Below are positions 14,084-18,481 of a stretch of 35,829 nucleotides of DNA, in pieces. The stretch is from NCBI GenBank assembly GCA_002709395.1, contig PAQU01000050.1, positions 23,248 to 59,076 of the forward strand, written 5' to 3'. Position 1 is the stretch's first letter, and each line of letters begins with the position of its first letter. Position numbers and translations under genes: made by a program. The DNA is from Roseibacillus sp. (GTDB lineage: Bacteria > Verrucomicrobiota > Verrucomicrobiia > Verrucomicrobiales > Akkermansiaceae). The notes below the pieces were generated by a model. The model did not search any database. It was not told the origin of the DNA and worked only from the letters and a program-made list of their open reading frames with translations.

Positions 14084-15019
14084 TCAGTTGCCAGAGGCCT
14101 CAAGAGCTGCAATGTTGTTGCGCATCACGCTGAGGAAGTCCCCCTCCGCCGGCTGGTTTGCACAGGGCGAGATGACGATGCTGATGAGGCCAGCTTCCCT
14201 CAGGAGTTCAACGTTTCGGCCGAGAGGAGTGCTCTCCCAGATGAAAACCCTGGCATCTGGATGTGTTTTTCGGATGTTGGCCAGTGCCGCCATGTCCTGA
14301 GGGGTAATTTCATTCCCGGGTTCCCAGAGTAGCGAGGGAGTGACGAGGTCATAGGCGCGAGACCAGTAATGGTAGACCGGGTGTGAGGTGATAACCGTAG
14401 CTGGCCTCAGTTTCGAGGCTGCGGCTTTCATTGCAACGTCGAGGGCTTTGAGGTCTTTCTGGAGGTCCTGAAGCCTGTTCATCAGGGTGGTTTTGTGCCT
14501 GGGGAATTGTTCGGTGAGCGCGAGTGCCACGGCGGAGGCCTGCGCAGAAGCCTGCTTGAGGTCCAGCCAAGTTGTGAAGGCGAGTCCCTCATGGGAATGA
14601 CTTTCTGATCCTTTCTTGTGCTTGTGACTGATGCTGTCCTTGAGCCTGATGAGTTGATTCTCGAACGAGCTTGAGGTGACTACAGTGGCCTCGTAGGGGA
14701 GAGTCCGGGTAGCGGTCCACTTGGCATAGTTCGCTCCGTTGAGCAGGATAAGGTCGGCCTTCTGGATGGAGGTGACCTGTTGATCGGAAGGTTCCCAGAA
14801 GGCCGGATCCTGTCCGGCAGGGATATCAAAAAGCACGGTGGCAAACCCATCCGCAAGACGTTTGGCGAAATAGGCCAGGGGATAGTTTACGGCGGCAATT
14901 ACCGGGTCTTCCCTTGCCTTTTCGCCAGCTGGGTTTTCTCTGAGACCCTCTTCACAGGACAGCAACAGGAGGAGGAAACTGCTGGAGATGAGGGCGGATC
15001 GGCAAACGGACTTATGCAT
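14084..15019 (-). CDS. ZnuA/TroA-like metal-binding lipoprotein with altered ligand sites
   Basis: A 311-residue solute-binding protein of the ZnuA/TroA fold (PF01297). A lipoprotein signal ends in FLLLLLSC (Cys22). Family landmarks are PVIAAVNYPLAYFAKRLADG, IQKADLILLNGANYAKW, ITSHPVYHYWSRAYDL (His213) and VMRNNIAAL. A His-rich loop HKHKKGSESHSH (about 132-143) fits zinc capture. However, the first ligand position (usually DPHxxEP) reads DPAFWEP (Ala73), and the usual HxWLDP reads FTTWLDL, so two classical His ligands are missing. This suggests a divergent subfamily whose metal site, if any, differs. It is the last gene of the cluster, 18 bases after the FtsX-type permease, so it probably serves that transporter rather than a ZnuB-type channel. 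Confidence 0.82.
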   Translation of the reverse strand: MHKSVCRSALISSSFLLLLLSCEEGLRENPAGEKAREDPVIAAVNYPLAYFAKRLADGFATVLFDIPAGQDPAFWEPSDQQVTSIQKADLILLNGANYAKWTATRTLPYEATVVTSSSFENQLIRLKDSISHKHKKGSESHSHEGLAFTTWLDLKQASAQASAVALALTEQFPRHKTTLMNRLQDLQKDLKALDVAMKAAASKLRPATVITSHPVYHYWSRAYDLVTPSLLWEPGNEITPQDMAALANIRKTHPDARVFIWESTPLGRNVELLREAGLISIVISPCANQPAEGDFLSVMRNNIAALEASGN

Positions 15020-15037
15020 TGTGACGGGGTAAGGGTC

Positions 15038-16222
15038 TCAGTTGAGCAGCTTGGAAAGCATTTCAGGGGCAATTGACCGGGTGAGAGCTCCGGCCAGGAG
15101 CGAAAGAGTCATTGCGGAGATTACGATAACGGCGACCTCCATTCCCTGCAGGCAGAATATTACATGTCGGGTTGCGCCGATCTTGGAATAGGTGCGAAGT
15201 TCACGCTCCCGGAGTCGAAAGGAGAGAAGAAATACCATGAGTGCCAGTCCGAGAGCGGCCAACCCGAGGAGGCGGAAGGCGGTGAGGGCGAGGCGCTGCG
15301 TGGCAAAGAGGGTAGAGGCAAGGTTCTCCACCGCTTTGAGAGGGATCACAATTTGCTCTGTAATTTCTTCGTCCTGATAGAAGGCAAGGGCAAGGGCACG
15401 TTGCTTGCGGTTCTTCGGGACAACAACAGCGGAAGAAAGAGGGTAAGTGGACTGGTCACCGTGGAAGTGAAAGCTCTGGATGTTGGTGGTGGTTACTTCG
15501 TTGAATTCCACTACCGAGGAGTTGGCGCGGATTACGTTCCCGTCAGATTCCCGTGAGAGAGCATTATCGCCGGGAGCAGCCACTTTCTGGTGTCCATGCG
15601 CCAGGCCTTCAATGATCCAGGTGGTCTTCAGATCGACGAAGACGGCATCATCGTCAGCGGTCTGATTCGGAGCGAGTATCCCGGTGATACGCATCCTGAG
15701 GGGGTAGACGCCTGCAAGATCGAATATGTTTTCCGGTGAGGAGATGATTGTGTCGCCCGGTTTAAGGTTTTGTCGTTCTGCAAGGGCTGCTCCTATCACG
15801 CAGTCTCCGAGACGTGTGATCCAGCGTCCGGCGGTAAGATTAAGTCCACGTAATTCGAAGTATGTCAGCGTTGTTCCTATGATGGGAGCGCCGCCGGCCC
15901 TGAACCGGACATGAAGTGGAATTGTTCTGCCGAAGCCCTGGGATACGAGGTTTTCGTAGGCGCCATATTTCAGGGGGGGCAGTTCCTGAGGAGTAAAGTA
16001 GAGTGAGTTGAGAGTAAGGTCTATGGAACTCCCTTCCGGTCCCACCAGTAAGGGGGTGGAGCGTGCGCGGTCCTCGAGGACGGTTTCGCTTTCACTGATG
16101 AAGATATGGAGGGCTCGCGGGAAGTAGAGGGTGAGAGCGATGCTGCCAACAAGCAGAAGCGATCGAACAGGCCGGTGACGGAGGGCCTTCCAGCTGAGGA
16201 ATGCGATGCCTCCGAGGTTCAT
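15038..16222 (-). CDS. FtsX/MacB/LolE-type ABC permease with FHFHGD motif
   Basis: A 394-residue permease with the type VII (MacB/FtsX) layout: one N-terminal helix (about 18-33), a large extracytoplasmic domain (about 35-270), then three C-terminal helices starting near FRLLGLAALGLALMVFLLSF. RLRERELRTYSKIGATRHVIF after the second helix matches the FtsX-family coupling region (RxREIxxLRAIGA). The outer domain contains FHFHGD (about residue 250), unusual for this fold and potentially metal binding. Such permeases move lipids, lipoproteins or peptides, or act as mechanotransmitters, rather than pumping ions through the membrane. The start ATG overlaps the ATPase stop (16219-16222, ATGA), so subunits are translationally coupled. 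I infer a complex with the ATPase and lipoprotein; the substrate is unknown. Confidence 0.85.
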   Translation of the reverse strand: MNLGGIAFLSWKALRHRPVRSLLLVGSIALTLYFPRALHIFISESETVLEDRARSTPLLVGPEGSSIDLTLNSLYFTPQELPPLKYGAYENLVSQGFGRTIPLHVRFRAGGAPIIGTTLTYFELRGLNLTAGRWITRLGDCVIGAALAERQNLKPGDTIISSPENIFDLAGVYPLRMRITGILAPNQTADDDAVFVDLKTTWIIEGLAHGHQKVAAPGDNALSRESDGNVIRANSSVVEFNEVTTTNIQSFHFHGDQSTYPLSSAVVVPKNRKQRALALAFYQDEEITEQIVIPLKAVENLASTLFATQRLALTAFRLLGLAALGLALMVFLLSFRLRERELRTYSKIGATRHVIFCLQGMEVAVIVISAMTLSLLAGALTRSIAPEMLSKLLN

Positions 16223-16902
16223 GGGCAGGTGGGCTCCCGGGATTGGTTGAGGTCTTCAAAATGAATAACCCTGTCAAATGAGTCGAGAAGTTCGACGTCG
16301 TGTGTGGCTACGACCAGCGCCTGCTGGTTTTTGCGTGCAGAGTCTATCATCAGGCGGACCGTCCTGTGCTTATTGGAGGAATCGAGATTTCCGGTGGGTT
16401 CGTCGGCCAGGACCAGGGTTGGACTGGTGCTCAGGGCCCGGCAGATTGCTGCTCTCTGGCGTTCACCATGTGAGAGGCTGGCAGGGAGGATGCTCCAGTA
16501 GCGCTCGATTCCCATTTTTTCAGCGAGCTGCTTTGCGGTTGACTCAAGGGAAGCCCGGTCGTTCCTGAGCCCAAGGTGAAGTGGCAGGAGGATATTGTCG
16601 CCAACAGAGAGATGCTCAACCAGTTCGAATTCCTGGAAGATCAGACCCATGCGGGAGAGTCGGAAGGCTGCGGAGCGAGTCGGGCGCAGGGAGTTCAGCT
16701 CTACGCCATCTACCTCGATACGTCCTTGTTCTGGCTGGAGGATTCCGGCAATGAGGTTGAGAAAGGTTGTCTTGCCACAGCCACTTGGCCCCACGATGGC
16801 AACGGTCTGCCCCGGGTTGCATGTAAATTCCTCTATGCGCATGCGGTAAGGACTACGCGGATAGGAGAACTCGACTTTCTCGACCTGGAGCAGGGGCTTC
16901 AT
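16219..16902 (-). CDS. ABC transporter ATP-binding protein, LolD/MacB type
   Basis: A complete 227-residue nucleotide-binding subunit: Walker A GPSGCGKTT, Q-loop MGLIFQEFELVEHLSVGDN, signature LSHGERQRAAICRAL, Walker B LVLADEPTGNLD, H-loop VATHD. NLDSSN after Walker B and NILLPL near the Q-loop are typical of the LolD/MacB/FtsE class, which matches the FtsX-type permease next to it. In the signature, LSHGE replaces LSGGE/Q, a known mild variant. It overlaps both neighbours by four bases (ATGA at 16899-16902 and at 16219-16222), indicating coupled translation. It should energise the permease from the cytoplasmic face. Confidence 0.93.
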   Translation of the reverse strand: MKPLLQVEKVEFSYPRSPYRMRIEEFTCNPGQTVAIVGPSGCGKTTFLNLIAGILQPEQGRIEVDGVELNSLRPTRSAAFRLSRMGLIFQEFELVEHLSVGDNILLPLHLGLRNDRASLESTAKQLAEKMGIERYWSILPASLSHGERQRAAICRALSTSPTLVLADEPTGNLDSSNKHRTVRLMIDSARKNQQALVVATHDVELLDSFDRVIHFEDLNQSREPTCP

Positions 16903-18170
16903 TTTGATTCAGGTGCGGGGGGAGGCACAGGAGCCCTTTGACGATCATGGAGGGTCAGAAGGGTGATCTTCCATTTCTGTTCCACGGGTTCGACCTCGAA
17001 AGAAGCGCGGTAGAGGTTGAGGCGGTCGTGAAAGTGGCCCCAGTGACCAACCCGACCACTCACTTCCCATTCGCAGAGAGCTTGAAAACCCGGCCTCGTC
17101 GGGAGAGGCGAGGACTTGGAGGATTCGATACGAAGATCGTTTACCCGGACTCTTGAGCCGTCGCGCTCCCTGCTTTGAAGGGTTCTTTGGATTTCGAGAA
17201 ATATGGGAGTGAGGGCTTCTCCTCCTGCTACCTTATCCAGTTCTTCATACTGCTGATCGCGATTCTGATAGTTGAAGGAGTGGTATACTCCCCTCAAAAG
17301 AGGATCCAGAATACGGGCTGCTGCGGCATCGCTGATGCTGATTGAGGATGTTTTTCCGCGGAGCGGAATACCAACCCCCTTGAATACGATCGCTGCAGGA
17401 AGAATGAGGCCGATAAGGGTGAGGCGGATGACCAGGTTTTCTTTTGCCCGGAAGATGATGAACCCTGCAGGGAAGATAATAATAATCAGGGCAAGGCTGA
17501 GCCATGGAATCCTGAACGGTTCTGCTGCCGTAAGAGCAGGGAGAGGTGGGGGAGTTGGTGGAGAGTTGCGAGCGCCGGAGCGATACCTGCCCCGGATGTT
17601 AAGGGTGGGATTGAATTTTGTCAGGTTGAAGTTACGCGTGCCTCCGGCATCAGCCACCTTGACAGTGACAAAGGGCGAGTTTTCGGGCAAGAGGTCCCAG
17701 AATACCTGAAGAGCCTGGCGAGGATCGAAGTTAGGTGTAGCGTAGATAGCGCTGATTCTGATGTCTCGTGCGGTAACTGTTGCGTCATGGTCGATGATGG
17801 AGAATTCAGTGGCGTCCGGTTCAATGAAGTGAATCCGGTCCAAGGTGAAAACCAGAGGCTCGTCCTGTATGGTGACAGGACATTTTCCTGCGAGAAAATT
17901 TCCGATAGTGGTCTTGAGGTCATCCTTCTCCTCGGGTCGGATTTCCGAGTCTGGTTCAAGACCAAGGTCGATCCATTCTTGAAGGGCCAGCGGGCTCACC
18001 AGAAACTCTTTCTCGATCTGCCATGCATCAAGATAGAGCGCTCCGCTCAATGCGGCCGGAGCAGCGCCCTGCTCCTGGCCTGGTGTTGAAACAGTTCCCG
18101 AGATCGCGATCACAAGGATGACTGCGACCTGGCGGGCGATGAGAATGGGGTTAGGTAGCGGTGCAAGCAT
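16899..18170 (-). CDS. Exported membrane protein with GHWGHFH motif, first gene of ABC cluster
   Basis: A 423-residue protein that I cannot assign to a named family. The track ORF extends to 18317, but the first 49 codons are Arg/Ser-rich without a signal; ATG 18170 gives a good signal peptide (ARQVAVILVIAISGTV). Residues ~40-200 form a soluble outer domain (LYLDAWQIEKEFLVSPLALQEW...). A Pro-rich linker leads to two membrane helices (about 222-240 and 248-270). The C-terminal domain (about 280-423) contains WEVSGRVGHWGHFHDRLNLYRA with GHWGHFH at 375-381, a plausible metal site. Four-base overlap with the ATPase gene and its position as first gene imply a role in the same transporter, perhaps as metal acceptor or accessory subunit. 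Confidence 0.7.
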   Translation of the reverse strand: MLAPLPNPILIARQVAVILVIAISGTVSTPGQEQGAAPAALSGALYLDAWQIEKEFLVSPLALQEWIDLGLEPDSEIRPEEKDDLKTTIGNFLAGKCPVTIQDEPLVFTLDRIHFIEPDATEFSIIDHDATVTARDIRISAIYATPNFDPRQALQVFWDLLPENSPFVTVKVADAGGTRNFNLTKFNPTLNIRGRYRSGARNSPPTPPPLPALTAAEPFRIPWLSLALIIIIFPAGFIIFRAKENLVIRLTLIGLILPAAIVFKGVGIPLRGKTSSISISDAAAARILDPLLRGVYHSFNYQNRDQQYEELDKVAGGEALTPIFLEIQRTLQSRERDGSRVRVNDLRIESSKSSPLPTRPGFQALCEWEVSGRVGHWGHFHDRLNLYRASFEVEPVEQKWKITLLTLHDRQRAPVPPPAPESK

Positions 18171-18481
18171 GCCCTCCAAAGCAGGACTCCGGGCGCAGTC
18201 TATGTCGGAGCAGGGAGATGAGCAAGAGTCCCGGGGATAATCCGACGAAGGCCGGTTCCGGGCGTTAGGACCGATGAAAGATCGTCTGCTCTTATCATGA
18301 GAACGGGGCCAGTTCATTTTTCGAGAGAGATCGCTTCGACTTCAGGAAACATCGGTTATTTTAAGAAAGTTTTTGATAATGAGCATGGGAAGGTGCGAAT
18401 TGCGTCCTCTGAAGGGAGTAATTCGGGAGGGTTGGCTTGTAAGAAGGATCTCTGGCTGTCAGATTTTGACAACTCGCAGGT
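18171..18481. other. Divergent intergenic region (311 bases), no gene recognised
   Basis: It lies between the ABC cluster (leftward) and the large haem/WD40 gene (rightward). The only ORFs are the unlikely N-terminal extension of the leftward gene and two short shadows. An A/T-rich patch TTTTTGATAATGAGCATG (18370-18387) contains GATAAT as a possible plus-strand -10 about 95 bases before the rightward gene, and the stretch GATAATGAGCAT resembles half of a Fur-type box. Neither is strong enough to call. No convincing Zur-like palindrome was found. Confidence 0.3.

What the first reader, a model, noticed from the sequence alone, without database searches (positions are those of the whole stretch)
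14084..18170. Four-gene, translationally coupled ABC cluster combining an FtsX/MacB-type permease with a ZnuA-like lipoprotein and His-rich motifs
Seen: three genes share ATGA overlaps and the fourth follows after 18 bases. His-rich motifs occur in three products: GHWGHFH (first membrane protein), FHFHGD (permease outer domain) and HKHKKGSESHSH (lipoprotein). Known: ZnuA-like proteins normally serve ZnuB-type channel permeases, whereas FtsX/MacB permeases with LolD-type ATPases move lipids, lipoproteins or peptides mechanically. Inference: the machine may load, extract or shuttle metal, or metal-bound protein, at the inner membrane. From memory, operons in gammaproteobacteria that respond to zinc (the Zrg system of Vibrio; a similar operon in Pseudomonas) also pair FtsX-type permeases with metal-binding proteins, so this could be a PVC relative with a different accessory protein.
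Basis: partly seen in the sequence, partly recalled or inferred. Interest (0 to 1): 0.72.

Follow-up and report, generated by a model that had tools for sequence, protein, structure and literature searches.

The report
Widespread metal-linked three-helix ABC system
Four neighbouring genes encode an apparently undescribed ATP-driven envelope machine, found in many bacterial phyla, that pairs a shortened lipoprotein-exporter-type membrane protein with metal-handling partner proteins and probably passes a transition metal between them on the outer face of the inner membrane.

Summary
Four minus-strand genes (18170-14084) have two ATGA overlaps and an 18-base gap, and all three His motifs are present. 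The motifs are not chance: in relatives from many phyla the permease histidines are invariant (65/65), g1's HxxHxH is invariant (35/35) and the lipoprotein's HxH..HxH is 98-100% conserved. The gene set co-occurs widely, and where the lipoprotein gene is not adjacent to the permease it usually lies elsewhere in the genome (7/9). The permease forms its own 100/100 clade, apart from ZrgB. It lacks the fourth transmembrane segment, and the genome carries a separate Zrg-like locus. The 'ZnuA' has lost two of three canonical His ligands (Ala, Thr). No Zur-like box was found. Neighbouring NikR, DUF4198, TonB and heavy-metal regulators point to metals, nickel or copper as much as zinc. Most likely it is a MacB-type mechanotransmission machine handing metal between periplasmic carriers (confidence about 0.5). 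New variant of a known kind; substrate untested.

The parts
16899..18170 (-). g1: 423-aa membrane-anchored periplasmic protein; signal/anchor segment, N-domain of ZrgA/Ang-1-like fold, two TM segments, NTF2-like C-domain carrying GHWGHFH; no Pfam or NCBIfam family
   Evidence: start at 18170 chosen from SD GGAGGG at 18172-18177 and alignment of relatives
17028..17048 (-). GHWGHFH motif of g1 (H376, H379, H381 invariant in all relatives aligned)
16219..16902 (-). ABC ATPase, FtsE/LolD/MacB class, below the curated cut-off of every NCBIfam model listed
15038..16222 (-). FtsX/MacB-type permease, 394 aa, large periplasmic domain, only three TM segments (fourth TM of the superfamily missing)
15590..15598 (-). 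HGH motif (H209, H211) of the permease periplasmic domain
   Evidence: 100% in 65 relatives
15458..15472 (-). FHFHG motif (H252, H254) of the permease periplasmic domain
   Evidence: 100% in 65 relatives
14084..15019 (-). ZnuA-fold lipoprotein (PF01297) with non-canonical metal site: canonical His1 to Ala73, His2 to Thr150, His3 kept as His213
14591..14626 (-). HKHKKGSESHSH loop of the lipoprotein (HxH..HxH, 98-100% conserved)
18197..18225 (-). sigma70-like TTGCTC-N17-TAGACT upstream of g1, kept in Roseibacillus relatives; no Zur-like palindrome seen

Best explanation
The four genes encode one envelope machine for handling a transition metal in the periplasm. Shown by sequence or model: an ATPase of the LolD/FtsE class; a MacB-fold permease with a large periplasmic domain, four invariant histidines and only three TM helices; a ZnuA-fold lipoprotein whose canonical three-His site is stripped but which carries a conserved HxH..HxH loop; and a membrane-anchored protein joining a ZrgA/Ang-1-like domain to an NTF2-like domain with an invariant HxxHxH motif. 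Inferred: the permease forms no channel. ATP binding and hydrolysis move its periplasmic domains (mechanotransmission, as in MacB and LolCDE), and this motion drives capture, release or handover of the metal (or metal complex) between the lipoprotein, the permease His motifs and the g1 protein on the outer face of the inner membrane. The metal then goes to a separate importer or to an exported metalloenzyme. Which metal is not settled; genomic context favours nickel or copper at least as much as zinc.
For: Cross-phylum conservation of the gene set: of 52 loci with enough flank, the lipoprotein is linked in 39, g1 in 37 and both in 30. Of nine genomes with the permease but without an adjacent lipoprotein gene, seven carry the same special lipoprotein elsewhere. 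All seven intact-cluster genomes among 60 family members have a third, lower-scoring ZnuA-family gene besides the canonical ones, so it is dedicated. His motifs are nearly or fully invariant. g1 model: Foldseek hits Cu-bound Ang-1 (9gce, E 3e-5), ZrgA (8ezw) and PA4063 (7ahw); Ang-1 binds Cu with Kd 74 nM and Ni with 220 nM (PMC12537917). Permease model: MacB, LolCDE, YbbAP, HrtBA. Metal context: a CusRS-type heavy-metal two-component system in Methylomonas; TonB receptor, NikR and CopC in Methylomagnum; DUF4198, a Ni-binding family, beside the operon in Paracoccus and in R. ishigakijimensis; a Metal_resist protein with an ECF sigma factor and TonB receptor in R. ishigakijimensis.
Against: No metal binding, expression or phenotype has been measured for any member. 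Regulators and neighbours differ between lineages, so no single metal is indicated, and most neighbours are unrelated to metals. A few permease loci have neither partner nearby (6 of 52). Distances between the His motifs could not be measured because model coordinates are not exported. The Ang-1 N-terminal His is absent from g1. An A-I protein (AztC) with two His replaced by Ala still binds zinc (cited in PMC9820375), so zinc is not excluded.
Confidence: 0.5

Rival explanations
1. A zinc importer working like ZrgABC: the lipoprotein and g1 deliver zinc, and the ABC core moves it into the cytoplasm under zinc limitation.
For: Same permease superfamily as ZrgB; g1 N-domain has the ZrgA fold; ZrgABC supports zinc-limited growth in Vibrio; the lipoprotein is in the ZnuA family.
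Against: Separate clade from ZrgB; only three TM helices; canonical Zn ligands lost; no Zur-like box; a separate Zrg-like locus exists in the genome; even for PA4064/65 an export role is argued (PMC11481552).
Confidence: 0.2
2. An exporter or extractor: the machine pulls a metallophore, peptide, lipoprotein or metalloprotein out of the inner membrane or periplasm, as MacB, LolCDE and PA4064/65 do, and the His residues serve recognition of a metal-bearing cargo.
For: Fold and ATPase class; PA4065 phenotypes with pyochelin-cobalt; no channel architecture expected from the fold.
Against: No MacA-type adaptor or TolC in the conserved gene set; near-obligate pairing with a solute-binding-protein fold is unusual for exporters; no biosynthetic genes recur next door.
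Confidence: 0.2
3. A heme or other tetrapyrrole handling machine like the HrtBA heme exporter, with the His motifs as axial ligands.
For: HrtBA is among the structural matches of the permease; TonB receptors near some copies.
Against: HrtBA matches are no better than MacB or LolCDE; ZnuA-fold proteins are not known heme carriers (own knowledge); regulators nearby are metal-ion regulators.
Confidence: 0.05

Closest known systems
ZrgABCDE of Vibrio / PA4063-PA4066 of Pseudomonas
   Same: Split ATPase plus MacB/FtsX-type permease with a metal-binding periplasmic partner; g1 N-domain shares the ZrgA/PA4063 fold by Foldseek
   Different: Permease in a different 100/100 clade, without TM4, with HGH and FHFHG that ZrgB lacks; no PF10986 or DUF3299; a ZnuA-fold lipoprotein is present; no Zur box found
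MacAB-TolC, LolCDE, FtsEX (type VII / mechanotransmission ABC systems)
   Same: ATPase class, MacB_PCD periplasmic domain and overall permease fold
   Different: Three instead of four TM helices, invariant periplasmic His motifs, solute-binding-protein partner, no MacA/TolC
ZnuABC / cluster A-I metal importers
   Same: Lipoprotein has the ZnuA fold and a His-rich loop
   Different: Two of three His ligands replaced by Ala/Thr; partner permease is not ABC-3; the genome has separate canonical systems
Ang-1 anglerase domain of HupE/UreJ-2 proteins (PDB 9gce; PMC12537917)
   Same: Best Foldseek match of the g1 model (E 3e-5); periplasmic metal-binding domain attached to a membrane part
   Different: No N-terminal His, no HupE/UreJ-2 profile match, extra NTF2-like C-domain with HWGHFH

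Membership tests
Zrg system (ZrgABCDE / PA4063-66) | ZrgA protein, PF10986 | tested here: not met
   No PF10986 hit in the four proteins; only a fold-level resemblance of the g1 N-domain
Zrg system (ZrgABCDE / PA4063-66) | DUF3299 (ZrgE) in the operon | tested here: not met
   Absent here; present at another locus, G000:C43, with its own ABC, permease and COG0523 gene
Zrg system (ZrgABCDE / PA4063-66) | Permease belongs to the ZrgB clade and has four TM | tested here: not met
   Separate clade, 100/100; C-terminus 52-57 aa after E341 (45 after the following KIG box in the window) in all 65 members, against 85-92 aa after the equivalent box in ZrgB and paralogs
Zrg system (ZrgABCDE / PA4063-66) | Zur regulation | tested here: inconclusive
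   No shared palindrome or Zur-like box upstream of g1; the Zur site of this phylum is not known, so absence is weak evidence
ZnuABC / cluster A-I importers | ZnuA-family solute-binding protein | tested here: met
   PF01297 131.5 bits, cut-off 29
ZnuABC / cluster A-I importers | Three conserved His metal ligands | tested here: not met
   A73 98%, T150 95%, H213 95% in 42 relatives; alignment to AdcA
ZnuABC / cluster A-I importers | ABC-3 channel permease partner | tested here: not met
   Partner is MacB_PCD/FtsX type; ABC-3 permeases are at other loci, G000:C39 and C49:21262-23417
MacB/LolC/FtsX permease superfamily | MacB-like periplasmic core domain and fold | tested here: met
   PF12704 36.1 bits, cut-off 27; Foldseek MacB E 1e-11
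MacB/LolC/FtsX permease superfamily | Complete FtsX C-terminal domain with four TM helices | tested here: not met
   PF02687 17.9 bits, below 25.5, covering 9-72 of 120; last helix 352-393 in the model
Ang-1 anglerase | N-terminal His after signal cleavage | tested here: not met
   Mature N-termini of g1 relatives do not start with His (cleavage judged by eye)
Ang-1 anglerase | Ang-1 fold | tested here: met
   9gce E 3e-5, TM-score by target 0.61

The most novel reading that the evidence does not exclude
A distinct ABC family that moves metal ions without a membrane channel: a three-TM MacB-type permease whose outer domain carries its own His metal site and, driven by ATP, transfers metal between two periplasmic carriers (a ligand-stripped ZnuA and a ZrgA/Ang-fold protein), i.e. 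ATP-powered metal handover or metalation outside the cytoplasm.
Probability: 0.3. Interest if true: 0.82.

Novelty: new variant of a known kind. Interest (0 to 1): 0.64.

Why it matters
Whether FtsX/MacB-type systems such as ZrgBC and PA4064/65 import metal, export a metallophore or do something else is disputed in the literature (PMC9820375, PMC11481552). A widespread sister family with built-in His motifs, a missing TM helix and recognisable metal-handling partners gives a clean test of whether mechanotransmission ABC machines can move metal. It also suggests a role and fold for an unnamed protein family (g1) that sits beside genes now labelled only 'ABC transporter permease' and 'zinc ABC transporter substrate-binding protein'.

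Tried and rejected
(1) Direct Zrg membership: rejected by tree, profiles and TM count. (2) The lipoprotein as the missing receptor of the orphan ZnuBC on contig C39: unlikely, because the genome has a separate canonical ZnuA on C6 and the cluster protein is an extra third copy. (3) A shared Zur box between g1, znuA, znuBC and the Zrg-like locus: none found. (4) The zinc regulon ABC znuGHI of Caulobacter as the same system: rejected, it is ABC-2 type. (5) HupE/UreJ_2 domain in long g1 forms: suspected by eye, no Pfam match at E 0.1. (6) Recurrent neighbour families: no strong enrichment; FadL-type porins 4, sulfatase 3, MBL hydrolase 3 of 87 neighbours. (7) Literature searches for a published description of this family found none. 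(9) His-His distances in the permease model could not be measured.

Full report
Observation. The first gene starts at 18170 (ATG after GGAGGG), giving 423 aa; the ORF list begins it earlier, at 18317. The order g1, ATPase, permease, lipoprotein runs on the minus strand with two 4-base ATGA overlaps and an 18-base gap. Pfam recognises the ATPase (ABC_tran), the permease (MacB_PCD 36.1 bits, above cut-off; FtsX 17.9 bits, below cut-off and only positions 9-72 of 120) and the lipoprotein (ZnuA 131.5 bits). g1 has no Pfam or NCBIfam family. Full-length distant g1 relatives of about 600 aa have none either.

Conservation in the neighbourhood. Of six genomes sampled in the genus, including the window's own, five have the permease. 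The same gene order is seen in the four other same-genus genomes that have it and in many Roseibacillus records of the genome collection. Elsewhere in the family the set appears in variants. In Roseibacillus ishigakijimensis (L022/L085) g1 is replaced by an ECF sigma factor, a Metal_resist protein, a TonB receptor and a DUF4198 protein. In Rubritalea marina (L023/L130) a parvulin-type protein (Rotamase_2 match) precedes a longer g1.

Conservation across phyla. A scan of one genome per species with the permease alignment used only the peptide patterns FDLAGVYP and FxDLKTxW and gave 286 relatives. Eighty were kept, from Verrucomicrobia, Planctomycetes, Acidobacteria, several proteobacterial classes, Myxococcota, Cyanobacteria, Bacteroidetes, Nitrospinae, Calditrichota and others. 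In 65 aligned permeases the only recurrent histidines are H209, H211, H252 and H254, all 100% invariant. In 35 g1 proteins the HxxHxH histidines are 100% invariant. In 42 lipoproteins H132 and H134 are 100% and H141 and H143 are 98%. Since the search patterns contain none of these residues, this is not a selection artefact. It far exceeds chance.

Partnership. Of 52 loci with at least 4 kb upstream and 1.5 kb downstream, the lipoprotein is linked in 39, g1 in 37, both in 30 and neither in 6; the lipoprotein lies immediately downstream in 49 of 70. I then took nine genomes whose permease has no adjacent lipoprotein gene. Seven carry the same special lipoprotein (329-363 bits) at another place, with the same residue signature; one more has a fragment, one has none. 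Among 60 genomes of the family, the seven with an intact cluster have a third ZnuA-family gene that scores clearly lower (115-132 bits) than the others; genomes without the cluster have one or two, apart from one that has three high-scoring copies. The lipoprotein is therefore a dedicated, distinct subfamily and probably not the receptor of the standard ZnuBC.

The lipoprotein is not a normal ZnuA. Aligned with AdcA, the first canonical histidine (PHEYEP) is Ala73 (PAFWEP) and the second (HVWL) is Thr150 (TTWLD); only the third is kept (His213, SHP). Ala73 is 98% and Thr150 95% conserved. Zinc binding is not excluded: AztC with two His changed to Ala still binds zinc but releases it faster (stated in PMC9820375). 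A fast-exchanging carrier would suit a handover role (inference).

The permease. The AlphaFold2 model (mean pLDDT 86) matches MacB, LolCDE, YbbAP and HrtBA. All 65 members end 52-57 residues after Glu341, i.e. about 45 after the following KIG box. ZrgB and the own-genome paralog have 85-92 residues after the equivalent cytoplasmic box, where the fourth TM segment lies. The hydropathy count is noisy for individual members (43 of 65 give three), but the model also ends with one helix, 352-393. I conclude that the family has three TM helices and a periplasmic C-terminus. That is unusual for the superfamily; I know of no other example (own knowledge).

Relation to Zrg. I recovered ZrgB from genomes by locating ZrgA (PF10986) and reading the neighbouring genes; PF10986 and DUF3299 were confirmed at one of these loci. 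ZrgB is about 24% identical to the window permease and lacks HGH and FHFHG. In a maximum-likelihood tree of 43 permeases the window family is one clade (28 rows, 100/100). ZrgB groups with a DUF3299-linked permease in another (100/100). The window's genome has its own Zrg-like locus on another contig: DUF3299 protein, full-length FtsX permease, ATPase and a COG0523 GTPase nearby. The cluster is therefore not a Zrg member. It does work with a similar kit: the AlphaFold2 model of g1 (mean pLDDT 83) finds by Foldseek the Cu-bound Ang-1 domain of a HupE/UreJ-2 protein (9gce, E 3e-5), ZrgA (8ezw) and PA4063 (7ahw), which I assign by size to the N-domain, and ARC6/NTF2-like structures, assigned to the C-domain that carries HWGHFH. 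The tool does not print the aligned region, so this assignment is inference.

Which metal. Context in relatives: a heavy-metal (CusRS-type) two-component system next to g1 in Methylomonas; CopC, TonB receptor and NikR around the operon on a Methylomagnum plasmid; DUF4198 proteins on both sides in Paracoccus and one in R. ishigakijimensis. DUF4198 has been shown to prefer nickel, and Ang-1 binds copper (Kd 74 nM) and nickel (220 nM) (PMC12537917). Upstream of g1 in Roseibacillus a sigma70-like promoter is kept, but no Zur-like palindrome is seen and none is shared with the genome's znuA, znuBC or Zrg-like promoters. Nickel or copper is thus at least as likely as zinc, and the metal may differ between lineages.

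Mechanism. Best-supported view: ATP-driven motion of the permease's periplasmic domains (mechanotransmission, established for MacB) drives capture, release or handover of a metal among the lipoprotein, the permease's His motifs and g1. Steps shown: conserved parts, folds, partners, missing TM. Steps inferred: metal binding by the His motifs, absence of a channel, direction and destination. The main rivals are a Zrg-like zinc importer and an exporter of a metal-bearing cargo, as argued for PA4064/65. I found no published description of this family in the searched library, which holds only part of the literature.

Noticed in passing
G000:C43:5562-11536 (locus L026 2563-8537): A separate Zrg-like locus in the window's own genome: DUF3299 protein of 575 aa, full FtsX/MacB permease, ATPase, and a CobW/COG0523 GTPase nearby.
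   Followed up: yes
L188-L191, L193 (plasmids of Deinococcus, Thermus, Shinella, Paracoccus, Azospirillum): A sibling permease group sits in the order alkaline phosphatase, small (about 90-160 aa) hypothetical protein, ATPase, FtsX-type permease: another FtsX-type machine paired with a metalloenzyme.
   Followed up: partly
window:1-170 and G000:C49:19432-23417: The window begins inside an ABC-3 permease; just upstream on the contig lies a TroABCD-like Mn/Zn importer with two ABC-3 permeases.
   Followed up: partly
G000:C39:17731-19849 and G000:C6:13482-14255: In this genus canonical ZnuBC (with an upstream 153-aa protein of unknown family) and canonical ZnuA lie on different contigs, whereas several other genera keep them together.
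   Followed up: partly
window:11802-13972: A ThuA-like protein and an aldo/keto reductase follow the cluster on the same strand in Roseibacillus relatives; no link to metals is apparent.
   Followed up: no
L114:231-1496, L121:12543-13823, L145:4773-6038: Exported MBL-fold hydrolases (GntH equivalog 385 bits for L114; the others alike by eye) recur near the operon in delta-proteobacteria and a planctomycete.
   Followed up: partly
L143:11149-11730, L134:3912-4466: A 184-194 aa exported protein (no Pfam match for the L143 copy) follows the lipoprotein gene in methanotrophs.
   Followed up: no
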